DNA from: Nocardioides speluncae
Lineage (GTDB): Bacteria; Actinomycetota; Actinomycetes; Propionibacteriales; Nocardioidaceae
DNA: 64,000 nucleotides
Assembly: GCF_003121585.1 (NCBI RefSeq)
Contig: NZ_QEOO01000007.1
Coordinates: 62,001 to 126,000 of the forward strand
Direction: 5' to 3'
Made by a program: the position numbers and the translations under genes. This document shows, piece after piece, positions 3,721 to 24,950 of this stretch; within the stretch, counting starts at the first letter, position 1, and the number at the start of each line of letters is the position of its first letter. The notes beneath the pieces are model-generated. The model was not told the origin of the DNA, did no database searches, and was given only the letters and a program-made list of their open reading frames with translations.

Positions 3721-4518
3721 TCACCAGGCCGTGGGCTTGAGGATCGCGCCGACCGTGCCCGGAACCTGGCTCAGCCACACGTTGCGGAACTGCGGGTGCG
3801 CGGTGTTGAGGTAGGCGACCTTCGCCTGGCCCTTCACCGGGCTCGGGCAGAAGACCTTCTCCACGTCCTTCTGGCGCACGGTCACCGCCGGGGTGCCGTT
3901 GACGTTGAACCGGACCAGGAACTGGAAGCCGAGGTTCTCCGACCTGGGGACGGCCACGATCGTGCAGCTGAAGTTCGGCTTCTCGTCGATGTCGACCCGC
4001 GGCACCTTGCGGTCGCCGTACGAGCTGAGCACGAGCGAGCCGTCGGGCTTCTCGACGAACGGCGCGAAGATCATCGTGTCGTAGTTCTCGTTGCCGATGA
4101 ACGCGTCGCTGCCGTCGCCGGGCGCCCAGATGTTGATGTCGTTGCCGGTGTCGCCGACGAGTACGTCGCTGTTCGGCGCCGCGAAGTCCTCCGGGCCGCC
4201 GACCAGGATGTCGCTGCCGGAGCCGCCGAGCGCGGTGTCGCCGCCGAGCCTGCCGATCAGCAGGTCGTCCTTGCCGCGCCCGAACAGCACGTCGGTGTTG
4301 TCCATGTGCTGCTTGGCGGCCACGCCGGGCGGCTGGATGAAGGTGTTGTCGGCGTTGTCGTTGTCCGCGCCGACGGTGACGTCGTTGCCGTTCGTGCCGG
4401 GCGCGACGAACGCGGCGGCGCCCGTCGCGATCCCGGCGGTGAGTACGCCGACGACAGCGGCCGTGGCGAGCAGCCGACGGCCGCGGCGGCCGGTACGGGC
4501 CGGAGTGGGGTGGGTCAT
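3721..4518 (-). CDS. Secreted protein with degenerate haemolysin-type calcium-binding (RTX) repeats
   Basis: A 265-residue protein. Residues 1-36 form a signal peptide: an Arg-rich start, a hydrophobic core and an Ala-rich cleavage region ending G-A-A-A-F. Residues about 40-135 hold RTX-like nonapeptides rich in G-G-x-G-x-D, for example L-G-G-S-G-S-D-I-L-V-G-G and V-G-D-T-G-N-D, which in this family fold into a Ca2+-binding beta-roll. The C-terminal 110 residues match nothing I recognise and contain two Cys. It precedes the FAD hydroxylase by 6 bp in the same operon. An AAAGGGA ribosome site lies before the ATG. Binding or structural function outside the cell is inferred; nothing suggests an enzyme or a toxin. 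Confidence 0.75.
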   Translation of the reverse strand: MTHPTPARTGRRGRRLLATAAVVGVLTAGIATGAAAFVAPGTNGNDVTVGADNDNADNTFIQPPGVAAKQHMDNTDVLFGRGKDDLLIGRLGGDTALGGSGSDILVGGPEDFAAPNSDVLVGDTGNDINIWAPGDGSDAFIGNENYDTMIFAPFVEKPDGSLVLSSYGDRKVPRVDIDEKPNFSCTIVAVPRSENLGFQFLVRFNVNGTPAVTVRQKDVEKVFCPSPVKGQAKVAYLNTAHPQFRNVWLSQVPGTVGAILKPTAW

Positions 4519-12282: not shown

Positions 12283-13242
12283 ATGCCGACCACGACCACT
12301 CGCCGCGCCGCGGCCTGGCTCACCGCCGTACTCACCGCCCTGGTCGCACCGCTGGCGCTGGCCGTGCCCGCCGAGGCCGCGAGCGCGTGGCCGACCGAGC
12401 AGGACTCCTCGCCACGGTCCGCCAACGTGATGGCGCTGCAGTACCTGCTCACCGCCCGCGGCATCAGCACCGCGGCCGACGGCGACTTCGGGGCGGGCAC
12501 GCTCGCCAATGTGAAGACCTTCCAGTCCCGCAACGGGCTGACCGCCGACGGCATCGTCGGCCCTGCCACCTGGTCCAAGCTGGTGGTCACTCTGAGCCAG
12601 GGCGCGACCAACACCAACGCCGTGAAGGCGCTGCAGACCGCGCTCAACAAGTACCGCTACGGCCTGGTCGTCGACGGCGCCTTCGGCAGCGGCACCAGGT
12701 CGGCGGTGGTCGCCTTCCAGCAGGCGCGCGGGCTGGCGGCCGACGGCGTCGCCGGCCAGAACACCTGGCGCGAGCTGCTCGGCTACAGCCGGACCCACGA
12801 CCAGATCTACTGCTACTACTACGGCGGTACGACGTCGACCACGGTCACCACCGCGCAGGTCGAGAACGCCAAGTCGATCATCGCCGCCGGCAAGAGCGTC
12901 GGCGTGCCGCGCGACGGCCTGATCGTCGGGCTGATGGCCGCGATGCAGGAGTCCAAGCTGTGCAACATCTCGTTCGGCGACCGGGACTCGATCGGGCTGT
13001 TCCAGCAGCGGCCGAGCCAGGGCTGGTGCAACAACCAGGTCGGCTGCTGGCACCACACCCAGTCCTCGCTCGGCTTCTTCGGGCGCTCGTCGTACACCAA
13101 CAACCGCGGCCTGCTCGACATCGCGAACTGGCAGTCGATGAGCAAGACCCTGGCCGCCGATGCCGTCCAGCGCTCCTGCTGCCCCAACGCCTACGCCAAG
13201 TGGGAGGCACTCGCCACGGCGCTGGTCAACGCGCACGGCTGA
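12283..13242 (+). CDS. Secreted peptidoglycan-binding protein with lysozyme-like C-terminal domain
   Basis: A 319-residue exported protein. The signal peptide covers residues 1-36 (A-L-A-V-P-A-E-A-A). Two tandem peptidoglycan-binding (PG_binding_1) repeats follow at about 45-95 and 110-165, each with the D-G-x-F-G-x-G-T pattern. The C-terminal 150 residues have a transglycosylase-like stretch, M-A-A-M-Q-E-S-K-L then D-S-I-G-L-F-Q-Q-R-P, in which the Glu of Q-E-S could be catalytic. Several Cys suggest disulphides. A GGGGGGA ribosome site precedes the ATG. Cell-wall cleavage or remodelling is inferred. Confidence 0.85.
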   Translation: MPTTTTRRAAAWLTAVLTALVAPLALAVPAEAASAWPTEQDSSPRSANVMALQYLLTARGISTAADGDFGAGTLANVKTFQSRNGLTADGIVGPATWSKLVVTLSQGATNTNAVKALQTALNKYRYGLVVDGAFGSGTRSAVVAFQQARGLAADGVAGQNTWRELLGYSRTHDQIYCYYYGGTTSTTVTTAQVENAKSIIAAGKSVGVPRDGLIVGLMAAMQESKLCNISFGDRDSIGLFQQRPSQGWCNNQVGCWHHTQSSLGFFGRSSYTNNRGLLDIANWQSMSKTLAADAVQRSCCPNAYAKWEALATALVNAHG

Positions 13243-14002: not shown

Positions 14003-14956
14003 ATGCGAATCGTCGCGTTGCTCGCGATCGTTGCTCTGACAAGCTCGGCCGTTCCGGCGCAGGCCGCCGAACCGAGCCCCCTCACGCCGTACCACCGGAG
14101 CCCAGGCCAACCCGGCGCCGCCGGGGACGAGCAACCCCCTCGCCTGTCGGTGCGCAGGTACGAGACGGCCGTCTATCCGCACCGCGACCGCTACCTCGAC
14201 CGCACCCCGGTCGACGTCGAGACCAACGAGTGGGTCCGGCTCACCATCGAGTACGTCGACAGCGCGGGCAAGGTCGCCGAGACGATCAGGCGCGAGGGCA
14301 CGATCGACGAGCGGTTCTGGCTCGACGCCCGTACGGCGGGCGGCACGATGTGGCCCGCCGGCAGGTACCTCCTGCGGGCGACCGCGGTCGACCGGGACGG
14401 CAACGTGCGGGAGACCGAGCGCCGGTTCACCGTGTCCCACAAGCGCCTGGTCAAGCGGACCTGGAGGCGGACCTTCTCCGCCGCCGATGTGCTCACCCAG
14501 GGCGGCATCGACGTCGGCGACTGCTCGACCCTCAAGCGCCCGGCTCGCTCGGACTGGCGAGAGTCGCGTGGCTACTACTCGATGACCAAGTGCGACAACG
14601 CGGACGAGGGTCAGGTGGCGTCGGTGAACGGCGTCTGGGTGCCGAAAGCGCTCGAGGGCAGGTACGACTGGCTCCAGATCTCGATGCACGGCGCGGGCGC
14701 GCGGTCCGGCGGGCTACGCAACGGCCCCGATGCCTACCTGAACTTCGGCTACTACAACAAGGCGGGCACCTTCACCGGGCGGGCGGAGTTCGACGGCCGC
14801 ATGATCGAGCACTTCGGGCCACGGGTGAAGGCCAACGGCTTCGTCCGCGACAAGGACAGCGCGCCGTACATCCTGTTCTGGACCGGCCTCGCCGGCGGCA
14901 GCCGGTACGACGTGAAGTCGTTCACGGTGCGACTGCGGCGCTCCGTGCTCCGGTAG
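14003..14956 (+). CDS. Secreted paralogue 1 of 5 (short form): FlgD-like Ig domain plus two-Cys C-terminal domain
   Basis: A 317-residue exported protein. The signal peptide is residues 1-24 (ending Q-A-A-E). One FlgD-like Ig domain lies at about 50-140 (V-Y-P-H-R-D-R-Y-L-D, then W-P-A-G-R-Y-L-L-R-A-T-A-V-D-R-D-G-N). A C-terminal domain of about 170 residues is shared with the next four genes and has Cys174 and Cys197 spaced exactly as in all paralogues. Y-D-V-K-S-F-T-V-R-L lies near the end. This member lacks the two N-terminal domains of the others. I chose the ATG at 14003 because of the signal peptide and the upstream GGGAGACC. Function is unknown; an extracellular structural or binding role is inferred. 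Confidence 0.8.
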   Translation: MRIVALLAIVALTSSAVPAQAAEPSPLTPYHRSPGQPGAAGDEQPPRLSVRRYETAVYPHRDRYLDRTPVDVETNEWVRLTIEYVDSAGKVAETIRREGTIDERFWLDARTAGGTMWPAGRYLLRATAVDRDGNVRETERRFTVSHKRLVKRTWRRTFSAADVLTQGGIDVGDCSTLKRPARSDWRESRGYYSMTKCDNADEGQVASVNGVWVPKALEGRYDWLQISMHGAGARSGGLRNGPDAYLNFGYYNKAGTFTGRAEFDGRMIEHFGPRVKANGFVRDKDSAPYILFWTGLAGGSRYDVKSFTVRLRRSVLR

Positions 14957-15060
14957 CCGCTGGCGCGGGTTATCCACAGCTTCGCGGATTTTTACTTTGC
15001 GGAGGCGAAGTTCCGCATAGGCTCCCCTCGCCACTTTGCATTTCTCAAGGGGGAGTTCCC

Positions 15061-16551
15061 ATGCGCATCTCTGCGCTCATCGCTGTGCCCATGGCCCTGG
15101 TGGGCCTCGCCGTGCCGGCGTCCGCCGAAGACCCGGGCCTGACAGTCACCTGGCCGACGACGACCGAGGTCGAGGTGCCGACGACGTCGTACACGATCAC
15201 CGTCGCCGACGAGGCCGCCGAGCCGCAGGGCACTCTGTACGCCGAGTGGCAGGGCGAGCGTCAGGAGATCCCGCACGCCGGCAACTACGCGATGCAGTTC
15301 GCCAAGGGCGGCGTCGGCAGCATCAAGGTGATCCGCTGCGTGCCGGCCGACCCTGAGCCCGTCTGCACCGACACCGGCGTCACCTCGCCGGAACTGACAG
15401 TGTGGAAGCAGGCGTCGGTCACCCTCAGTGACGTCGGCGGTGTCGTCCGTCCGGGCACCAGGACCGCTGGCATTCGGCTCGACTACGTACCGAGCACGCC
15501 GGTGCAGGTGACCTGGTCGGTGTGGACCGCCGGCGGCGTGGCGAAAGCCGCCGGCGGGGCCACCTTCGTCCCGAATGGGGAGGGCTACGGGGAGTTCAGC
15601 TACCCGGTCCCCAACCTGGCAAACGGTTGGTACTACGTCCAGGCGAGCGTGGAGTTCGACATGGCGCCGTTCGGCCCGTTCAAGGGTGCCTCGGACAATG
15701 TGGTGGCCTTCTATCTCGACGCGACTGCGCCGCGGCTGTCACTCGGCCTGAGCGCGTCCTCGTTCTACCCGGCGACCGACGGCTATCGAGACCAGCTGTC
15801 AATCCGCGCTGCGACCAACGAGCAGGTCAAGCAGAGCCTCACTGTGCTCAATTCCTCGGGCGCCGTCGTCCGCACGCTCGGGTCCGGAAGGCTGGGCTTC
15901 CGCGACTCGGGCGCTTCGGTCGTGAAGACCTGGAATGGCCGCGACTCGCAGGCACGACTGGTGCGTGGCGGCACCTACACGATTCGATTCGAGGGCACTG
16001 ACCGTGTTGGCCGCAAGACGACGACGAGCAAGGAGGTCTTCGTCTCCGGCAAGCGTCTGCAGCGGGTGACCTGGAAGCGGACCTTCGCCGCGGCCCGGAC
16101 CATTGTCCGCAACGGCGCGTTCGTCCAGGCCTGCTCGACGCTGCGCAAGCCGTCGCTGCGCGGCTGGTCCGGGTCGCTGGGCTACTACTCGCGCACCAAG
16201 TGCAACCGGAACAACGCCGACATCGTGGCGACCAACAACGGCGTGTACGTGCCGAAGGCGTTCCAGAACCGGTACGGCACCTATCAGGTGAGCTTCTACG
16301 GTGGCGGCGCCCGCGGTGCGCGGAGCAAGTACATCGTGATGGGCTACCTCAACAACAAGGGCGACTTCACCCACCGGATCCAGGGCGGCGCCGCGGTTCG
16401 GACCTACGCCGGCAAGGTGGCCAGCGCCGGCAACTTCGTCCGCGCGAAGACGACCAAGCCGTACGTCCTGTGGACCGCCGGCCTCACCGACGGCAGCAGG
16501 TACGACGTGAAGTCGTTCACGGTGAGGCTGACCTACACCGTTCTGCGATAA
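15061..16551 (+). CDS. Secreted paralogue 2 of 5: three beta domains plus two-Cys C-terminal domain
   Basis: A 496-residue protein. The signal peptide covers residues 1-22 (V-P-A-S-A-E). Domain 1 (about 25-115) contains L-Y-A-E-W-Q-G-E-R-Q and a Cys pair before T-D-T-G. Domain 2 is Ig-like (about 120-220). Domain 3 is FlgD-like (about 225-325), with F-Y-P-A-T-D-G-Y-R-D and W-N-G-R-D. The conserved C-terminal domain carries Cys358 and Cys381, G-G-G-A-R-G and R-Y-D-V-K-S-F-T-V. GGGGGAGTTCCC precedes the ATG and recurs in nearly the same form before paralogue 4. The gap from paralogue 1 is 104 bp and holds a TGCGGA-N8-TCCGCA hairpin at 14998-15017. Paralogue 3 follows after 6 bp. Function is unknown. 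Confidence 0.82.
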   Translation: MRISALIAVPMALVGLAVPASAEDPGLTVTWPTTTEVEVPTTSYTITVADEAAEPQGTLYAEWQGERQEIPHAGNYAMQFAKGGVGSIKVIRCVPADPEPVCTDTGVTSPELTVWKQASVTLSDVGGVVRPGTRTAGIRLDYVPSTPVQVTWSVWTAGGVAKAAGGATFVPNGEGYGEFSYPVPNLANGWYYVQASVEFDMAPFGPFKGASDNVVAFYLDATAPRLSLGLSASSFYPATDGYRDQLSIRAATNEQVKQSLTVLNSSGAVVRTLGSGRLGFRDSGASVVKTWNGRDSQARLVRGGTYTIRFEGTDRVGRKTTTSKEVFVSGKRLQRVTWKRTFAAARTIVRNGAFVQACSTLRKPSLRGWSGSLGYYSRTKCNRNNADIVATNNGVYVPKAFQNRYGTYQVSFYGGGARGARSKYIVMGYLNNKGDFTHRIQGGAAVRTYAGKVASAGNFVRAKTTKPYVLWTAGLTDGSRYDVKSFTVRLTYTVLR

Positions 16552-16557
16552 GGGCCG

Positions 16558-18078
16558 GTGGTTCGCGGTTACCATCCATCGGTGCAGGGTCTCGGCTGGT
16601 TGTTGGCCGCCGGGCTGGCTCTGGCCGGCCTCGCGGTGCCGGCGTACGCCGAGCGCGACGAGCTGACGATCGACTGGACGGGGTGCCCCCTCGCAGTCGC
16701 GGTGCCGAGCACCGCGTGCACGTTCACGATCGAGGACTCCGCCGATCCGCAGGGTGACCTGTTCGCCGCCTGGCAGGACGACCCTCTGGAACCGCTACCG
16801 CACCTCGGTCAGCACACGATGAACTTCGACTCCGGTACCGAGCTCGGTGGCGTGATCTCGATCGTTCGCTGCGTCGATGGCTGTGCCCCGACCGGTGTCA
16901 GCTCACCCGAGCTCACGGTGTGGAAGGAGTCGCCGATGACCCTCGGCGGCGTGAGCGGCGTGGTGCGGCCGGGGGAGCGGACTGCCGAGGTCGACCTGCC
17001 GGACGCGCCGGACACGGAGCTCGAGCTGACCTGGAAGCTCTCCTACGGCGGGACGTCGTACGGCGACGGGACGGTGCCGGTGACCACCGACGACGACGGG
17101 CACGCCACCTTCCCCTACACCGTCCCGACCGGGCGCAGCGGCCGGCTGGGGCTGACCGCGAGGACGTCGTTCGACCAGCCGCCGTTCGGGCCGCACCGAG
17201 CCGTGGCGTCGCCGGCGTACTTCGACGTCGACCAGGCCGCGCCGACGCTGTCCCTCAGCCTCGGCACCACCTCGGTCTACCCGGCCACCGACGGCTACCG
17301 AGACCGGCTCACGATCCGCTACGGCACCAGCGAGCAGGTCAGCCAGCGGGTCGATATCCGCAACGCGGCCGGCACCGTCGTCCGCACGCTGGCGACCGGC
17401 ACGCTCGGCTCCGGCCACTCCGGCGCCGCCCGGACCATCACCTGGAACGGCCGCGACTCCGCCGACAACGTGGTGCCCGCCGGTAGCTACACCGTGCGCT
17501 TCGATGGCGTCGACCGCGTTGGCCGCTCCGCGACGGTGGCCAGGTCGGTGACGGTCTCCCACAAGAAGCTGGTGCAGAAGACCTGGCAGCGCGTGGTCAG
17601 GGCCGGCGACGCGGTCGCGCGCGGCGGCGCGATCGTCGGCTCCTGCTCGTCGCTGCGCCGCCCGGCCCGCTCGGACTGGCCCGGCTCCCTCGGCCTGCAC
17701 TCGCGGACCAAGTGTCAGCGCGCGGCCGACAGCCCGGTCACCGTGCTCCAGCGGGCCGCGGTGCCGAAGGCGTTCGAGGGCCGCTACGGCAGGCTCCAGA
17801 TCTGGCTGTACGGCGGCGGTGCACGCGGTCTGTCCGGCGGCGGCCGAGGCGCCCGGATCGACCTGGGCTACGCGTCGACCGCCGGCCCGCTCGCCCAGCG
17901 GGTGCGGTTCGGTGGCACCGTCGGCAGCCACGCCGGCCGCTCGGCGTACGCCCCCAACTTCGTCCACGCCAAGTTCGGCTCGCCGTACGTCAAATGGCTG
18001 GTGGGCGTTAACGGCGGCAGCAAGTACGACGTCCGCTCCTACACCCTCAAGCTGACCTACTTCCTCCTACAGGAGTAG
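16558..18078 (+). CDS. Secreted paralogue 3 of 5
   Basis: A 506-residue protein with the same order of domains: signal peptide (core L-L-A-A-G-L-A-L-A-G-L-A-V-P-A-Y-A), N-terminal beta domain, Ig-like domain, FlgD-like domain (V-Y-P-A-T-D-G-Y-R-D, W-N-G-R-D) and the C-terminal domain with Cys363 and Cys386. The start is the GTG at 16558, 6 bp after paralogue 2. A GTG at 16582 would give a more ordinary signal peptide and is a real alternative. Codon use is slightly more GC-rich than in its neighbours. It lacks the A-E-W-Q-G-E-R-Q form of the first domain (A-A-W-Q-D-D instead), so it has diverged most there. Confidence 0.8.
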   Translation: MVRGYHPSVQGLGWLLAAGLALAGLAVPAYAERDELTIDWTGCPLAVAVPSTACTFTIEDSADPQGDLFAAWQDDPLEPLPHLGQHTMNFDSGTELGGVISIVRCVDGCAPTGVSSPELTVWKESPMTLGGVSGVVRPGERTAEVDLPDAPDTELELTWKLSYGGTSYGDGTVPVTTDDDGHATFPYTVPTGRSGRLGLTARTSFDQPPFGPHRAVASPAYFDVDQAAPTLSLSLGTTSVYPATDGYRDRLTIRYGTSEQVSQRVDIRNAAGTVVRTLATGTLGSGHSGAARTITWNGRDSADNVVPAGSYTVRFDGVDRVGRSATVARSVTVSHKKLVQKTWQRVVRAGDAVARGGAIVGSCSSLRRPARSDWPGSLGLHSRTKCQRAADSPVTVLQRAAVPKAFEGRYGRLQIWLYGGGARGLSGGGRGARIDLGYASTAGPLAQRVRFGGTVGSHAGRSAYAPNFVHAKFGSPYVKWLVGVNGGSKYDVRSYTLKLTYFLLQE

Positions 18079-18175
18079 CCACCCAAGGTGGGCTAGACCA
18101 CCCGGATAGGTGATTTCGCCGTACATCCTTTCCTGCTTATGCTTCGGCGACTTTCGACAACTACGGGGGAGTTCC

Positions 18176-19663
18176 ATGCGTCTTCGCGCAGTCCTGATTG
18201 CCGTCCCACTTGCCGTCATCGGCCTTGCCGTACCGGCGTACGCCGAGCCGACCGTCACCGTCGACTGGGGTACGACCTCCGAGTTCAACGCCGACTACTA
18301 CGGCTACACGTTCCAGATCACCGATGCGGTCGCGGAACCTGAGCGGGGCACCCTGTACGCCGAGTGGCAGGGCGAGCGGCAGGCAATTCCCCACAACGGC
18401 CGCTACACCATGGACTTCGTCACCGGTGGGATCGGGACCGTCAAGATCGTGCGCTGCGTGGGCGAGCCGGAGATCTGCACGGATACCGGGGCCATCTCAC
18501 CGACCATCGAGGTCTTCAAGTACGCAAGCCTCGACGTGGAGGACTTCGACGACTGGTTGCTGCGAGACGGCGCACAGACCGCGCAGCTGAGGTCCTGGGA
18601 CTCCAGGATGCGCGGCGCCACCGTCGACCTCACCTGGTACGTGCGACTCGGGGAGGAGGGCGAGCCGGCGAGCTCGGGTACCGCTCAGGTCGTGGTGGGT
18701 GACAACGACCGGGCGAGTCTGCCGTTCACGATCTCGAAGACGACCACGGGCTACCAGGAGCTCTGGATCGAGGGAACCGTAGACATCGGGTCCTTCGGGC
18801 GGCACCGCGTCAGAGGCCACACCGAGCACTTCGAGGTCGACGCGACCGCCCCGCGAGTGTGGACTGGAGCCTCGGCGACTGCCGTCTACCCTGTGCGCGA
18901 CGGCTACCGCGACTCGATCAACCTCAAGGCGACGACGAACGAGTGGACCTCCGGTCGGCTGGAGATCCTGCGCGGCAGCAGCATGCTTCGCCGGATCTGG
19001 CTGACCGACCGCAGCGACCACGTCGTGCGCTACGACGGCCGCTCGTCAAGCGGCAAGGTGCTCGCCGCCGGCACCTACACCGCGAGGTTCACGCTGAAGG
19101 ACCGGGTTGGCCATGAGGTGACCGCCAGCCGGTCGTTCACGGTCTCCGGGAAGCGGCTGGTCACCCGGCACTTCCGGCGTACCTACAGCGCTGCGAGCAC
19201 CGTCGTCCGCAATGGCGCAACGGTGGGCCGCTGTTCGACGTTGGCGAAGCCGTCGGCGCGCGGCTGGGCGGGCTCACTCGGGTTCTATTCACAGACCAAG
19301 TGCCGGCGGCTCAACGACAGCCTGGTGGCCACCGTCAACGGCGTCTACGTGCCGAAGTCGGTCCAGGCGCGCTACGGCAAGCTCCGGGTCACGATGTACG
19401 GCGGCGGCGCCACGCGCGGCGTACGGCACGGCCGCAACGCCTACATTGTGATGTCATACATCAACCGGGCCGACGACTTCGCTGCGCGTGCCCAGTTCAA
19501 CGGCAGCCTCGGACAGCACGCGGGCCGAACGGTCAACGCTGGCGGCTTCGTCTGGAAGAAGACGACCAAGCCGTACGTCCTCTGGTTCACGGGCCTGACT
19601 GAGGGCAGCAACTACGACGTCAAGTCCTACACCGTTGATCTCGACTACACCGTCCTGCGTTGA
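18176..19663 (+). CDS. Secreted paralogue 4 of 5
   Basis: A 495-residue protein. The signal peptide covers residues 1-22 (G-L-A-V-P-A-Y-A). Domain 1 has L-Y-A-E-W-Q-G-E-R-Q and the Cys/C-T-D-T-G pair. An Ig-like domain, a FlgD-like domain (V-Y-P-V-R-D-G-Y-R-D) and the C-terminal domain with Cys353 and Cys376 follow. I chose the ATG at 18176 because of its ribosome site GGGGGAGTTCC and the signal peptide; upstream frame to 18110 is not coding-like. The 97-bp gap before it could hold a separate promoter. Paralogue 5 starts 22 bp after its stop. The product is predicted to be extracellular. Confidence 0.82.
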   Translation: MRLRAVLIAVPLAVIGLAVPAYAEPTVTVDWGTTSEFNADYYGYTFQITDAVAEPERGTLYAEWQGERQAIPHNGRYTMDFVTGGIGTVKIVRCVGEPEICTDTGAISPTIEVFKYASLDVEDFDDWLLRDGAQTAQLRSWDSRMRGATVDLTWYVRLGEEGEPASSGTAQVVVGDNDRASLPFTISKTTTGYQELWIEGTVDIGSFGRHRVRGHTEHFEVDATAPRVWTGASATAVYPVRDGYRDSINLKATTNEWTSGRLEILRGSSMLRRIWLTDRSDHVVRYDGRSSSGKVLAAGTYTARFTLKDRVGHEVTASRSFTVSGKRLVTRHFRRTYSAASTVVRNGATVGRCSTLAKPSARGWAGSLGFYSQTKCRRLNDSLVATVNGVYVPKSVQARYGKLRVTMYGGGATRGVRHGRNAYIVMSYINRADDFAARAQFNGSLGQHAGRTVNAGGFVWKKTTKPYVLWFTGLTEGSNYDVKSYTVDLDYTVLR

Positions 19664-19685
19664 GCCGGTCCGAAAGGTGAACTCG

Positions 19686-21131
19686 ATGACCAGAATCGCT
19701 GCGCTCCTCCTCGCACCGCTAGTGCTGCTCGGTGCCCTTACCTCGCCGACCCACGCGGACGACCCCGACCTGCGGGTGGACTTCCCCTGGGACCAGAGCT
19801 ACGTGAACGCCCACAGCGACCAGTACCAGATCTACATCGAGGACCGAGGGGTCGGACAGGTGTACGCCGAGTGGCAGGGCGCGCGCCAGCTGCTTCCTCG
19901 CTCGGGCTGGCACACCATGACCTTCGACAAGGGTGGCGAGGGCCGGATCTCCATCGTTCGCTGCTCGGGGGAGCCGCAGGAGTGCGTGGACACCGGACGG
20001 AAGTCGCCGGAGCTCACGGTGGTGGGCTCCCTGGAGTCGACGGCCACCGGCATCCCCGAGGCGGTTCCGAGCGGCGCGGTCGCGCCTATCGAGATCACCT
20101 CACCGCACCTCGCCGGCATCGATGTCGCCGTCGCCTGGACGGTGAGTCGAGGAGGTGGGTGGTCGCCGGTGACGGGCCGGTCCGAGACGCTACGCGCCGA
20201 CGAATCCGGCCGGGTCGCTTTCGACGTACGCTTCCCGCGCTCTACGCCCGAGGACGACTACGACGTGTCGATCCGCCTCGAGGCCGACGTCGCGCCGTTC
20301 GGTACCCGGGTCGGCCGGCACGGCGGCACCGTCCGGGTGGACAGCACCAAGCCACGGGTCAGTCTCAAGCTCCCGCCCGAGGTCTACCCGATTCGCGATG
20401 AGTACCTGGACACGGTGACCGCTCTTGCCGAGTTCTCCGAGCAGGCCGACAGCACCGTCGAGCTGCTCCGCGGCGACGAGGTGATCCGACGGTTCACGCA
20501 CAGGGACAAGTGGGGTGCGACGCAGCTGATCACGGGCCGGACCGCCTCAGGTGGTCTGCTGCCCGCGGGCAGCTACACCGTCCGGGTGACGGCCATCGAC
20601 CCGATGGGCAACACCGGATCTGCCTCCAGGTCGCTAGTGATCTCCCACAAGCGGCTGGTGAAGAAGACCTGGGAGCGCACGATCTCCGCGCAGGCCGCGA
20701 TGCAGCAGAGCACAGTTGCCCCATGCTCGACGCTCCGCCGCGGGAGCTCCCGCGGCTGGTCCGGCTCGCTCGGGCTCTACTCGCAGTCCAAGTGCCGCAA
20801 GGGCGCCGACCAGGTTCGCGTGGTCAATGCGATCGAGGTGCCCGACGCGTTCCAGTTCCAGTCGGTGCGGGTATCGACGTATGGCGGCGGAGCCACGGGT
20901 CGCGGTGGCGGGACAACCGCGTCGCTGTCGCAACTGCTCATCGAGGACTGGAGCACGGCCGGAGTGAGCCGCTTCAACGGCAAGGTCGGCCTCCATCATG
21001 GCGGCTGGGGTGCCGCATTCAAGCGCATCGACGGCAAGTGGCTGGTCCGCTGGCGTGTCTGGGCCGAGCACGGCAGCCGATACGACGTGAAGTCGTACAC
21101 CGTCCGCCTCATCTACACCGCGCTGCAGTAA
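19686..21131 (+). CDS. Secreted paralogue 5 of 5
   Basis: A 481-residue protein. The signal peptide covers residues 1-22 (L-T-S-P-T-H-A-D). The N-terminal domain has V-Y-A-E-W-Q-G-A-R-Q and a Cys pair. Ig-like and FlgD-like domains follow (V-Y-P-I-R-D-E-Y-L-D), then the C-terminal domain with Cys347 and Cys370. The FlgD-like domain carries G-R-T-A-S-G-G in place of the W-N-G-R-D turn, and an insertion of about five residues interrupts the Gly-rich turn of the C-terminal domain. AAAGGTGA precedes the ATG at 19686. It ends the array, and hrpA begins 45 bp later on the same strand but is functionally unrelated. The five genes are best explained by serial duplication. Confidence 0.82.
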   Translation: MTRIAALLLAPLVLLGALTSPTHADDPDLRVDFPWDQSYVNAHSDQYQIYIEDRGVGQVYAEWQGARQLLPRSGWHTMTFDKGGEGRISIVRCSGEPQECVDTGRKSPELTVVGSLESTATGIPEAVPSGAVAPIEITSPHLAGIDVAVAWTVSRGGGWSPVTGRSETLRADESGRVAFDVRFPRSTPEDDYDVSIRLEADVAPFGTRVGRHGGTVRVDSTKPRVSLKLPPEVYPIRDEYLDTVTALAEFSEQADSTVELLRGDEVIRRFTHRDKWGATQLITGRTASGGLLPAGSYTVRVTAIDPMGNTGSASRSLVISHKRLVKKTWERTISAQAAMQQSTVAPCSTLRRGSSRGWSGSLGLYSQSKCRKGADQVRVVNAIEVPDAFQFQSVRVSTYGGGATGRGGGTTASLSQLLIEDWSTAGVSRFNGKVGLHHGGWGAAFKRIDGKWLVRWRVWAEHGSRYDVKSYTVRLIYTALQ

Positions 21132-21176: not shown

Positions 21177-24100
21177 GTGCGTATCTCCTACCCACCCGAG
21201 CTCCCGGTCAGCGGGCGCCGTGACGACATCGCTGCGGCGATCCGGGACCATCAGGTGGTCATCGTCGCGGGCGAGACCGGGTCGGGGAAGACCACCCAGA
21301 TCCCCAAGATCTGCCTCGAGCTCGGCCGCGGGCTGGGGCAGGCCGAGGGCGGCAAGCTGATCGGACACACCCAGCCGCGCCGGATCGCGGCGCGATCGGT
21401 GGCCGAGCGGATCGCTGAGGAGCTCGGGACCGAGCTGGGCGACGTGGTCGGCTACCAGGTCAGGTTCACCGACCGGACCTCGCGCAGCAGCCGGGTCAAG
21501 CTGATGACCGACGGCATCCTGCTCGCCGAACTGCAGCGCGACCGGCAGCTGCAGAAGTACGACACGATCATCATCGACGAGGCCCACGAGCGCTCGCTCA
21601 ACATCGACTTCATCCTCGGCTACCTCAAGCGGCTGCTGCCGCGCCGGCCGGACCTCAAGGTGATCATCACCTCGGCCACGATCGACCCGGAGCGGTTCGC
21701 CGAGCACTTCGCCGACAAGCGCGGCCGGCCCGCTCCGATCATCGAGGTGAGCGGCCGGACCTACCCGGTCGACATCCGCTACCGGCCGCTGGTCGAGCTG
21801 CCAGAGGAGGACGAGGAGGGCGAGGCGGTCGTCCGCGACCAGACCGAGGCGATCCTCGACGCCGTCCGCGAGCTCTCCGCCGAGGGCCAGGGCGACATCC
21901 TGGTCTTCCTGCCCGGTGAGCGAGAGATCCGGGACACCGCCGACGCGCTCAAGCCGCTCACGACCGGCCGGTCGGCGGTCGAGGTGGTGCCGCTCTACTC
22001 GCGACTGTCGGCGGCCGAGCAGCACAAGGTCTTCGAGCGGCACACCGGGCGCCGCGTCGTACTGTCCACCAACGTCGCCGAGACCTCGCTGACCGTCCCC
22101 GGCATCCGGTACGTCGTCGACACCGGCGTCGCCCGGATCAGCCGCTACTCCGCGCGGACCAAGGTGCAGCGACTGCCGATCGAGCCGATCAGCCAGGCCT
22201 CCGCCAACCAGCGTTCCGGTCGCTGCGGCCGGGTCGAAGCGGGCATCGCGATCCGGCTGTACGGCGAGGAGGAGTTTGCCGCGCGCCCGGAGTTCACCGA
22301 TCCCGAGATCCTGCGCACCAACCTCGCCAGCGTCATTCTGCAGATGACCTCGCTCGGGTTGGGCGACCTGGCGCGGTTCCCGTTCGTCGACCCGCCCGAC
22401 AAGCGCAACGTGGCCGCCGGCGTACAGCTGCTGGAGGAGTTGGGCGCCCTTGGCGACCAACGCCTCACCAAGTTGGGGCGGCGCCTGGCGCGGCTGCCGA
22501 TCGACCCTCGGCTGGGCCGGATGATCCTCGAGGCCGAGCGGCTCGGCTGCGTGCGCGAGGTGATCGTGATCGCGGCGGCGCTCTCGCTGCAGGACCCGCG
22601 GGAGCGGCCGGTGGAGTTCCGGCCGCAGGCCGACCAGCAGCACGCCCGGTTCAAGGACGAGACGAGCGACTTCATCACCTGGCTCAACCTGTGGCGCTAC
22701 CTCAAACAGCAGCAGCGCGAGCTGTCCTCGAGCGCCTTCCGGCGGATGTGCAAGGCCGAGTACCTCAACTACCTGCGGGTGCGCGAGTGGCAGGACTTCG
22801 AGTCCCAGCTCCGCCAGGTCTGCAAGGAGATGAAGATCCAGGTCGGTACGCCGGCCGACCTGCCCGACGCCGACGGCATCCACCAGTCGCTGCTCTCCGG
22901 GCTGCTCTCGCACATCGGGCTGCTGGAGGAGCGCGAGCGGCGGGTCGAGAAGGGCCAGCGCCCGGCGATGCGGGAGTACCTCGGCGCCCGTGGCGCGAGG
23001 TTCGCGATCTTCCCGGGCAGCGGCCTGAAGGGCAAGAACCCGCAGTTCCTGATGGCCGGCGAGCTGGTCGAGACCGGTCGGCTCTGGGCCCGCCAGAACG
23101 CCGCGATCAACCCCGAGTGGGCCGAGCGGCTCGGCTCGCACCTGGTCAAGCGCACCTACAGCGAGCCGCACTGGTCGAAGAAGCGTGCGGCGGTGATGGC
23201 CGTCGAGCGGGTCACGCTGTACGGCGTACCGATCATCGCCGACCGCCCCGTCAACTTCGGCCGGATCGACCCGGAGCTGAGCCGCGAGCTGTTCATCCGG
23301 CACGCGCTCGTCTACGGCGAGTGGTCGACCCTTCACAAGTTCTACGCCAAGAACCTGCGCCTCCTCGACGAGGCCGCCGAGCTGGAACACCGGGCCCGGC
23401 GCCGCGACCTGGTGGTCGACGAGCACACGCTGTTCGACTTCTACGACGCCCGGATCCCGGCCGACGTGGTCAGCGGGGCGCACTTCGACCAGTGGTGGAA
23501 GAAGGAGCGGCAACAGCGCGGCAACCTGCTCACCTTCGACCCCGCGATGCTCACCCACGACACCATCGCCGAGGTCCAGGAGGCGGACTTCCCGACCACC
23601 TGGGAGGCGGCCGGGGCCGACGGTGGGATGACGTTCCCGATCGGCTACCACTTCGAGCCCGGTGCGGCCGACGACGGCCTGACCATCGACGTACCCGTGG
23701 CCACGCTCAACCAGGTCGACGCCGCCGACTTCTCGTGGAACGTGCCGGGCCTGCGCGAGGAGCTGGTCACCTCGCTGATCCGCAGCCTGCCCAAGCCGCT
23801 CCGGGTCCACTTCGTGCCGGCGCCCAACCATGCGCGGGACTTCCTGGCCAAGGTGCCGGCGGGGGAGGAGCCGCTGCTGGACGCGTTGGAGCGGCACTTC
23901 CGCTCGACCACCGGTGTCGTGGTGCCGCGCGAGGCGTGGGACTGGACCAAGGTCGCCGACCACCTCAAGCCGACCTTCCGGGTGCTGTCGGAGCAGGGCG
24001 CCGAGGTCGGGCGCGGCAAGGACCTGGAGGCGCTGAAGGCGCCGCTGCGGCCGCGGTTCGCGCAGGCGATGCGCGAGGTCGCCGCGGAGACCGGACGGAC

Positions 24101-24950
24101 GGTGACCGGCCAGACGACGTGGACGTTCGGCACGATCGAGCGGTCCTTCACCCAGAAGCGCGCCGGGCACGAGGTCCGCGGCTACCCGGCCCTGGTCGAC
24201 GAGGGCGAGTCGGTGGGGCTGCAGGTGTTCGGCTCCGAGGATGAGGCGGACGCCCGGCACCGGCTCGGAGTACGAAGGCTGCTCCTCCTCGAGACGGCGT
24301 CGCCGGTCAAGGCGGTGCTGGACTCACTGACCAACCTCGAGAAGCTGTCCCTTGCGAGCACGCCGTACGCGGGTGTCGGTGAGCTGCTCGACGACTGCCG
24401 TGCCGCAGTCGTCGGCGAGACCGTCGACGCTCGGCCCGCCGTGCGCAGTACCGAAGAGTACGACGCCCTGCTGGCCGCCGCTGGCGCCGATCAGGAGGCG
24501 CGGCTGCGCGGGGTGCTCGCCGACGTGATCCGGGTGCTGGCCGCGTGGCGGCATACCGACAAGCTGCTCAGCGGCCGCGCGGACATGCTGATGCTGCCGG
24601 CGCTCGCGGACATGAAGGCCCAGCTGGGCCGGCTGATGGACCGCGGCTTCATCGGCGAGGCGGGACCCACGCAGCTGCGCCGCTACCCGGTCTGCCTCGC
24701 CGCGCTCGACTACCGCCGCGAACGCCTCGACGGCCAGGTCAACCGGGACCGCCAGCTGATGGACCAGATCGGCGACCTGCAGGACGCCTACCTGCACCAG
24801 ATCGACGCCCTCCCCGACGGCCGTCCGCCGTCCGCCGCGCTGCGGCAGGTGCGCTGGATGCTGGAGGAGTACCGCATCTCGTTGTGGGCGCAGCACCTCG
24901 GCACAGCGGGCTCGGTCAGCGACGCCCGGATCCGCAAGGCCCTCGGGTGA
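21177..24950 (+). CDS. hrpA: ATP-dependent RNA helicase HrpA
   Basis: A 1257-residue DEAH-box helicase, close to the usual HrpA length of about 1300. The GTG start at 21177 begins M-R-I-S-Y-P-P-E-L-P-V. Walker A is G-E-T-G-S-G-K-T-T at about residues 32-40, followed by the DEAH box (I-I-D-E-A-H-E-R-S) and motif III S-A-T-I-D. Motif VI follows as Q-R-S-G-R-C-G-R. The helicase-associated domain, OB-fold region and the long HrpA-specific DUF3418 C-terminal part are all present. In bacteria HrpA remodels mRNA and resolves stalled ribosomes. The gene is monocistronic and converges on a sigma factor gene 13 bp away. Confidence 0.96.
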   Translation: MRISYPPELPVSGRRDDIAAAIRDHQVVIVAGETGSGKTTQIPKICLELGRGLGQAEGGKLIGHTQPRRIAARSVAERIAEELGTELGDVVGYQVRFTDRTSRSSRVKLMTDGILLAELQRDRQLQKYDTIIIDEAHERSLNIDFILGYLKRLLPRRPDLKVIITSATIDPERFAEHFADKRGRPAPIIEVSGRTYPVDIRYRPLVELPEEDEEGEAVVRDQTEAILDAVRELSAEGQGDILVFLPGEREIRDTADALKPLTTGRSAVEVVPLYSRLSAAEQHKVFERHTGRRVVLSTNVAETSLTVPGIRYVVDTGVARISRYSARTKVQRLPIEPISQASANQRSGRCGRVEAGIAIRLYGEEEFAARPEFTDPEILRTNLASVILQMTSLGLGDLARFPFVDPPDKRNVAAGVQLLEELGALGDQRLTKLGRRLARLPIDPRLGRMILEAERLGCVREVIVIAAALSLQDPRERPVEFRPQADQQHARFKDETSDFITWLNLWRYLKQQQRELSSSAFRRMCKAEYLNYLRVREWQDFESQLRQVCKEMKIQVGTPADLPDADGIHQSLLSGLLSHIGLLEERERRVEKGQRPAMREYLGARGARFAIFPGSGLKGKNPQFLMAGELVETGRLWARQNAAINPEWAERLGSHLVKRTYSEPHWSKKRAAVMAVERVTLYGVPIIADRPVNFGRIDPELSRELFIRHALVYGEWSTLHKFYAKNLRLLDEAAELEHRARRRDLVVDEHTLFDFYDARIPADVVSGAHFDQWWKKERQQRGNLLTFDPAMLTHDTIAEVQEADFPTTWEAAGADGGMTFPIGYHFEPGAADDGLTIDVPVATLNQVDAADFSWNVPGLREELVTSLIRSLPKPLRVHFVPAPNHARDFLAKVPAGEEPLLDALERHFRSTTGVVVPREAWDWTKVADHLKPTFRVLSEQGAEVGRGKDLEALKAPLRPRFAQAMREVAAETGRTVTGQTTWTFGTIERSFTQKRAGHEVRGYPALVDEGESVGLQVFGSEDEADARHRLGVRRLLLLETASPVKAVLDSLTNLEKLSLASTPYAGVGELLDDCRAAVVGETVDARPAVRSTEEYDALLAAAGADQEARLRGVLADVIRVLAAWRHTDKLLSGRADMLMLPALADMKAQLGRLMDRGFIGEAGPTQLRRYPVCLAALDYRRERLDGQVNRDRQLMDQIGDLQDAYLHQIDALPDGRPPSAALRQVRWMLEEYRISLWAQHLGTAGSVSDARIRKALG

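What the first reader, a model, noticed from the sequence alone, without database searches (positions are those of the whole stretch)
14003..21131. Tandem array of five secreted paralogues with a shared C-terminal domain I cannot place in any family
Five consecutive genes encode exported proteins. All share a FlgD-like Ig domain and a C-terminal domain of about 150-170 residues in which two Cys lie exactly 23 positions apart with no indel in any copy (C174/C197, C358/C381, C363/C386, C353/C376, C347/C370), followed by Gly-rich turns and an almost invariant Y-D-V-[KR]-S-[FY]-T closing strand. Four copies add two more N-terminal beta domains with a second Cys pair. No enzyme motif, anchor or partner gene is visible. 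Local amplification with divergent N-terminal domains and a fixed C-terminal core resembles a variable surface or matrix adhesin set.
Basis: partly seen in the sequence, partly recalled or inferred. Interest (0 to 1): 0.78.

Follow-up and report, generated by a model that had tools for sequence, protein, structure and literature searches.

The report
Mosaic secreted proteins with conserved tail
A bacterium that is probably a soil Nocardioides carries five neighbouring genes for proteins predicted to be exported, which share a conserved, positively charged tail domain while relatives with nearly the same tail differ strongly in their middle domains; the tail likely holds the proteins to the cell envelope and recombination likely swaps the middles, which would make them a set of changeable surface proteins.

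The parts
14003..14956 (+). g1, 317 aa: signal-peptide-like start, Ig-like domain (FlgD_ig below cut-off), CTD
15061..16551 (+). g2, 496 aa: signal-peptide-like start, D1, D2, D3 (FlgD-like Ig), CTD
16582..18078 (+). g3, 498 aa (possible upstream GTG start at 16558): D1, D2, D3 (FlgD_ig over cut-off), CTD
18176..19663 (+). g4, 495 aa: D1, D2, D3, CTD
19686..21131 (+). g5, 481 aa: D1, D2, D3, CTD
15412..15717 (+). D2 of g2 (residues 118-219), the most variable domain: 19-37% identity among g2 and four relatives
15718..16053 (+). D3 of g2 (residues 220-331), FlgD-like Ig domain, partly variable; its tree conflicts with that of the CTD
16054..16548 (+). CTD of g2 (residues 332-496), Cys358/Cys381; predicted CBM-like jelly roll
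14453..14953 (+). CTD of g1
17575..18072 (+). CTD of g3
19166..19660 (+). CTD of g4
20661..21128 (+). CTD of g5
21177..24950 (+). hrpA-type helicase gene (DEAD, Helicase_C, OB_NTP_bind, DUF3418), conserved neighbour of CTD genes; context, not part of the set

Best explanation
The five genes encode proteins predicted to be secreted, which likely stay on the cell envelope through a conserved, basic C-terminal domain of predicted carbohydrate-binding-module fold, and whose Ig-like middle domains are likely exchanged as modules by recombination between conserved ends, so that the cell would present a changeable set of surface domains. Shown by the calls: the gene array, the CTD's terminal position, Cys pair and charge, the site beside hrpA in relatives, and conserved ends with a divergent middle together with conflicting D3 and CTD trees. 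Predicted: secretion and the folds. Inferred: the disulfide, envelope binding (my best guess is an anionic wall polymer or glycan), recombination as the cause, and an antagonist such as phage or competitors as the driver.
For: CTD is the last domain: 93 of 110 distinct matches end within 5 residues of the C-terminus, at most 43 beyond. It is basic: mean +8.2 per 100 aa, positive in 100 of 110, against -3.1 for the preceding region; controls -2.2 (166 conserved neighbours, 2% at or above 8.2) and -1.8 (41 secreted-like, 7%). CBM-type fold. The same CTD ends S8 proteases in three genomes outside the family and in 6 of 6 proteins of a region-limited search, the query's own included. Cys pair in 52 of 52 CTDs. 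Mosaic: g2 group CTD 82-96%, D2 19-37%; P0010/P0015 CTD 93%, D2 34%, D3 33%; AU test rejects the CTD groups in D3 (p 0.0017, 0.0032). L049/L052: upstream 95-99% DNA identity, middle 33-57%, D2 dS 1.21 and D3 0.90 against 0.05-0.29 in 11 neighbours; L052's D2-D3 is no closer to L049 (36%) than to window g3 (35%).
Against: Nothing shows that the proteins reach the surface or bind anything; the jelly roll is common and implies no function. 10 of 110 CTDs are not positive and 11 of 110 are not more positive than what precedes them. The strongest mosaics come from proteins held only under source code lgn, which I take to be Logan read-archive assemblies (recalled), so chimeric assembly is possible. 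D1 does not conflict with the CTD group of g2 (p 0.19). Among the reference-genome pairs only L049/L052 (and its sister comparison L047/L052) is strong; L074/L065 and L068/L069 are milder, L047/L049 shows nothing, four further pairs little or nothing. The fum-site trio shows no tree conflict. In g3 and its relatives D2 is conserved (74-83%). No donor of a swapped middle was found.
Confidence: 0.45

Rival explanations
1. Reversed adhesins: the CTD is the ligand-binding tip for an environmental or host glycan, and the Ig-like domains are only a stalk that diverges freely.
For: CBM and lectin fold neighbours; stalk-like Ig domains; terminal position fits a tip as well as an anchor.
Against: No other anchor is visible; a stalk under weak constraint does not explain raised dS in L049/L052 or the D3/CTD tree conflict; the CTD also ends soluble-type proteases, although there too it could bind substrate.
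Confidence: 0.25
2. No exchange: the middle domains diverge fast in place, by relaxed or positive selection, around conserved ends.
For: dN/dS is high in the family's domains (0.22-0.96 over nine pairs) against mostly under 0.35 in neighbours; most reference-genome pairs show little excess of dS; the fum-site trio shows no tree conflict.
Against: dS of 0.9-1.2 in D2-D3 beside neighbours at 0.05-0.29 in L049/L052 and CTD groups rejected in D3 are not expected from divergence in place. Frames stay open and the Cys pair is kept in 52 of 52 CTDs, against plain decay.
Confidence: 0.15
3. Secreted matrix or exoprotease accessory proteins: stand-alone C-terminal halves of subtilases that bind a substrate or matrix polymer in the medium.
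For: Shared FlgD-Ig plus CTD ending in S8 proteases of other families.
Against: No protease domain in the five, none of the eight CTD genes seen in this genome was recognised as a protease (for seven of eight by Pfam, the eighth by reading), and no protease gene among the conserved neighbours named.
Confidence: 0.12

Closest known systems
Fibrillar adhesins and FA-like proteins (PMC8286594, passages read; PMC9210967, listing only)
   Same: Multi-domain surface-type proteins with Ig-like stalk domains; many listed FA-like proteins have no known anchor; they are said to evolve quickly.
   Different: No known adhesive domain; the conserved domain is C-terminal, whereas actinobacterial FA-like proteins mostly carry the adhesive domain N-terminally; the variability lies between two conserved parts.
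Carbohydrate-binding modules of families 36, 6, 35 and others
   Different: No Pfam match in 52 of 52 CTDs and no profile similarity to CBM_6 from this family of bacteria; a disulfide-type Cys pair; binding unknown.
C-terminal halves of actinobacterial S8 subtilases (Big_7, FlgD_ig, CTD)
   Same: Same order FlgD-type Ig then CTD at the C-terminus.
   Different: No S8 domain in the window proteins.
Domain-shuffled Csh-type adhesins (PMC10952558, abstract and outline read)
   Same: Exchange of domains is proposed to drive diversity of surface proteins.
   Different: Different domains; here the exchange is seen between nearly matching copies at one site.

Membership tests
Fibrillar adhesin / FA-like protein | Stalk of Ig-like domains | tested here: met
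   Predicted beta domains D1-D3; FlgD_ig over cut-off in g3 only
Fibrillar adhesin / FA-like protein | A known adhesive domain family | tested here: not met
   No adhesive domain in Pfam scans of the five proteins or of 52 CTDs
Fibrillar adhesin / FA-like protein | Known cell-surface anchor | tested here: not met
   No LPxTG-like motif or TM-like stretch in five of five; PMC8286594 reports that most FA-like proteins also lack one
Fibrillar adhesin / FA-like protein | Surface exposure and adhesion | not testable with these tools
   Needs fractionation and binding assays
CBM6/35/36-type carbohydrate-binding module | Jelly-roll fold | tested here: met
CBM6/35/36-type carbohydrate-binding module | Sequence membership | tested here: not met
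   Pfam 0 of 52; hhalign to eight CBM_6 sequences probability 0.1%; CBM36 and CBM35 profiles not compared separately
CBM6/35/36-type carbohydrate-binding module | Glycan binding, calcium site | not testable with these tools
   No coordinates or ligands available
P/Homo B (P_proprotein) domain | Sequence membership | tested here: not met
   Pfam 0 of 52; hhalign to 11 P domains of the own genome and family probability 0.1%
P/Homo B (P_proprotein) domain | Fold | tested here: inconclusive
   No such entry in the rows shown, which excludes nothing
S8 subtilase | Peptidase_S8 catalytic domain | tested here: not met
   Absent from the five; present in L112-L114
Antigenic-variation system with silent cassettes or invertase | Silent copies, recombinase or phase-variable repeat | not tested
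   Only direct repeats inside the array were listed

The most novel reading that the evidence does not exclude
A recombination-fed recognition repertoire in soil actinobacteria: a wall-binding CBM-fold tail displays Ig-like domains whose variable module is exchanged between strains and paralogues, serving as self/non-self tags or as moving targets for phages and competitors, a free-living counterpart of antigenic variation.
Probability: 0.25. Interest if true: 0.8.

Novelty: new variant of a known kind. Interest (0 to 1): 0.58.

Why it matters
It describes a terminal domain family absent from the libraries searched here, links it to secreted proteases elsewhere in the class, and points to a spot of domain replacement at a conserved chromosomal site in free-living actinobacteria, where variable surface proteins are, as far as I recall, little studied. 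Two questions become directly testable: what the CTD binds, and what selects for new middle domains.

Tried and rejected
Set aside: enzyme (no domain in the five); known defence protein (PADLOC 0 of 5); phage origin (PHROGs 0 of 52; no match of g2 in the phage or plasmid records; viral fold matches are tail-fibre-like and weak in TM); P/Homo B domain by sequence; CHU_C sorting domain (below cut-off in g2). Fresh local amplification was rejected because four of five copies have their own counterparts; g1 has no close one. The full-length Foldseek search returned mostly multi-Ig proteins such as complement C3 and C5a peptidase with query TM of 0.16-0.28 in the 50 rows shown, uninformative for the CTD. 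A swapped CTD suggested by identities in L048/L058 was not borne out by trees. Papers: FlgD Ig-like domain + Nocardioides, FlgD Ig-like + serine protease + actinobacteria, and FlgD Ig-like domain + subtilase gave none; FlgD_ig gave three, seen as listing only, none by title on this family; two broader searches gave one unrelated paper each; a phage-receptor search gave three general papers. Absence from print is claimed only for these searches.

Rows dropped before counts: P0016 (the window's g3 again) and P0030 (28% identity over 29% of the query) were left out of A2 and of the tree; in the tree L115 (cut by a stop) and the weak members L099-L104 were left out; g1 was missed by my gene caller and added to A4 by hand. 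The first protein search scored only 7998 candidates.

Full report
What is there. Five consecutive + strand genes, 14003-21131, separated by 104, 30 (6 with the upstream start), 97 and 22 bases, encode proteins of 317, 496, 498, 495 and 481 aa. All start with a signal-peptide-like segment; none shows LPxTG, lipobox or a later TM-like stretch. The last 155-170 residues (CTD) are shared, with Cys spacing 23 in 5 of 5. An HrpA-type helicase gene starts 45 bases downstream.

Organism. So the window is probably from Nocardioides in a broad sense; inference.

Family. Pfam, NCBIfam, PHROGs, PADLOC and PDB sequence searches do not place the CTD. A 20-row profile matched 52 of 341 genomes of the family; a 52-row profile 62 of 341, in 3 of 26 genera. 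At most 10 or 11 candidates per genome were scored, so these are lower bounds. An order sample gave 26 of 391 genomes, all 26 in the same family. A class sample gave 16 of 394 genomes in 9 of 137 genera, 9 of the 16 outside the family. I fetched 7 of these 9; five gave a frame with the CTD (L112-L116; L115 ends early at a stop), two did not (L117, L118). Three of the five (L112, L113, L114) carry Peptidase_S8, Ig-like and FlgD_ig domains before the CTD; L116 has no S8 domain, L115 was not scanned. A region-limited search with the L113 CTD gave 6 proteins, its own included, all with Peptidase_S8. The own genome has 8 CTD genes: five here, two on either side of a sucCD-like gene pair on contig 4 (my reading of the translations), one on contig 20. 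No other genome listed shows more than 3.

Site. I examined 38 CTD-bearing stretches (window, L010, L043-L078), chosen from the hits and not at random. 14 of 38 have the hrpA gene near, 9 of these immediately next to a CTD gene; 8 of 38 have a class I fumarase gene next to one (names). At the hrpA site relatives hold one or two copies.

Age. In the CTD tree (86 rows, quick search, SH-aLRT only) g2 groups with P0006-P0009 (99), g4 with P0010, P0012, P0013, P0015 (85), g3 with P0014 (98) and then P0011 (91), g5 with P0021 (99); g1 has no close partner. These paralogues therefore seem to predate the split of those lineages. P0009/P0011 and P0012/P0014 are reported with the same longest contig length (5230, 6769), which hints at arrays there; not verified.

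Charge. Over 110 distinct CTD matches the net charge averages +8.2 per 100 aa and is positive in 100; the preceding up to 320 residues average -3.1; in 99 of 110 the CTD is the more positive. In the same stretches 51 CTDs average +9.4, the last 160 residues of 166 conserved neighbours -2.2 (2% at or above 8.2) and of 41 secreted-like proteins -1.8 (7%). The 110 are distinct sequences, not independent events, and the secreted-like set was picked by a crude rule.

Constant ends, variable middle. Among g2 and P0006-P0009 the CTDs are 82-96% identical, D1 56-77%, D3 35-60%, D2 19-37%. P0010 and P0015: CTD 93%, D1 89%, D2 34%, D3 33%. In contrast g3, P0011 and P0014 keep D2 at 74-83% with CTD 60-72%. 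In D3 the CTD group of g2 and the pair P0010/P0015 are rejected (AU p 0.0017, 0.0032); two groups seen in D3 are rejected in the CTD (p below 1e-49) and in D1 (p 0.0006, 0.005); the CTD group of g2 is not rejected in D1 (p 0.19). The two D3 groups were named after looking at the D3 identities. P0006-P0015 are held only under source code lgn, which I take to be Logan read-archive assemblies (recalled); assembly chimeras are possible.

Reference genomes. L049 (G216, one contig) against L052 (G176, about 90 contigs): shared neighbour proteins have median identity 97% (n 11). DNA identity per 150 bases, counted from the first possible start codon (the likely ATG lies about 200 bases in), is 95-99% from -1300 to +50, 85% and 73% to +350, 33-57% in the middle, 70-77% in the CTD, 52-85% for about 800 bases past the gene, then 91-100%. 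dS is 1.21 in D2, 0.90 in D3, 0.47 in D1 and CTD, against 0.05-0.29 in 11 neighbours. The signal peptide letters are the same, yet L052's D2-D3 is 36% identical to L049 and 35% to window g3. L047/L052 behaves alike. L074/L065 is milder (D2 dS 0.63; six neighbours 0.18-0.45), L068/L069 too (D3 0.73, D2 0.92; 0.29-0.59). L047/L049 shows nothing; L044/L048 and L048/L058 exceed their neighbours slightly in D2; L056/L071 and L067/L078 show little or nothing. In the window D2 is 18-35% identical between g2-g5, D1 41-55%, and the CTDs of all five 37-59%; dS is 0.5-1.1 throughout, so no recent conversion is visible.

Mechanism. The CTD is last, mostly basic, of CBM-like predicted fold, and shared by S8 proteases and protease-free Ig proteins. 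The simplest reading is a non-covalent retention module for the envelope or its matrix with Ig-like domains in front. Signal peptide, D1 and CTD offer homology on both sides of the variable middle, so recombination among paralogues or strains could replace it; the array would be store and substrate. What selects for change is unknown; phage, competitors or kin recognition are guesses.

Literature. PMC8286594 (passages): FA-like proteins pair adhesive with stalk domains, for most no known anchor was found, and in Actinobacteria the adhesive domain tends to be N-terminal. PMC10952558 (abstract and outline): domain shuffling in Csh adhesins. PMC9210967 (start of abstract in the listing): fibrillar adhesins evolve quickly.

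Noticed in passing
own genome, contigs C1, C3, C4, C11, C12, C19, C26, C42, C50: 15 matches to the P/Homo B domain (PF01483) in this genome, while only 2 of the 60 other family genomes searched have any (one each).
   Followed up: no
L010 4515-6392 and 8662-10611 (own genome, contig C4): Two distant CTD paralogues lie on either side of a sucCD-like gene pair; in 8 other stretches CTD genes lie next to a class I fumarase gene. Whether the TCA-cycle neighbourhood means anything is unknown.
   Followed up: partly
L098 4386-6173 (own genome, contig C20): A third distant CTD gene of the own genome, found only with the enriched profile.
   Followed up: partly
L099-L104: Weak CTD relatives in other genomes of the genus whose N-terminal part contains FlgD_ig-type domains and whose Cys-rich loop looks different; possibly a sister family.
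   Followed up: partly
12283-13242: Secreted-type protein with two PG_binding_1 domains upstream of the array; by reading, its C-terminal half is Cys-rich.
   Followed up: no
3721-4518 (- strand): Secreted-type protein with Gly/Asp-rich repeats that look like calcium-binding repeats (by reading).
   Followed up: no
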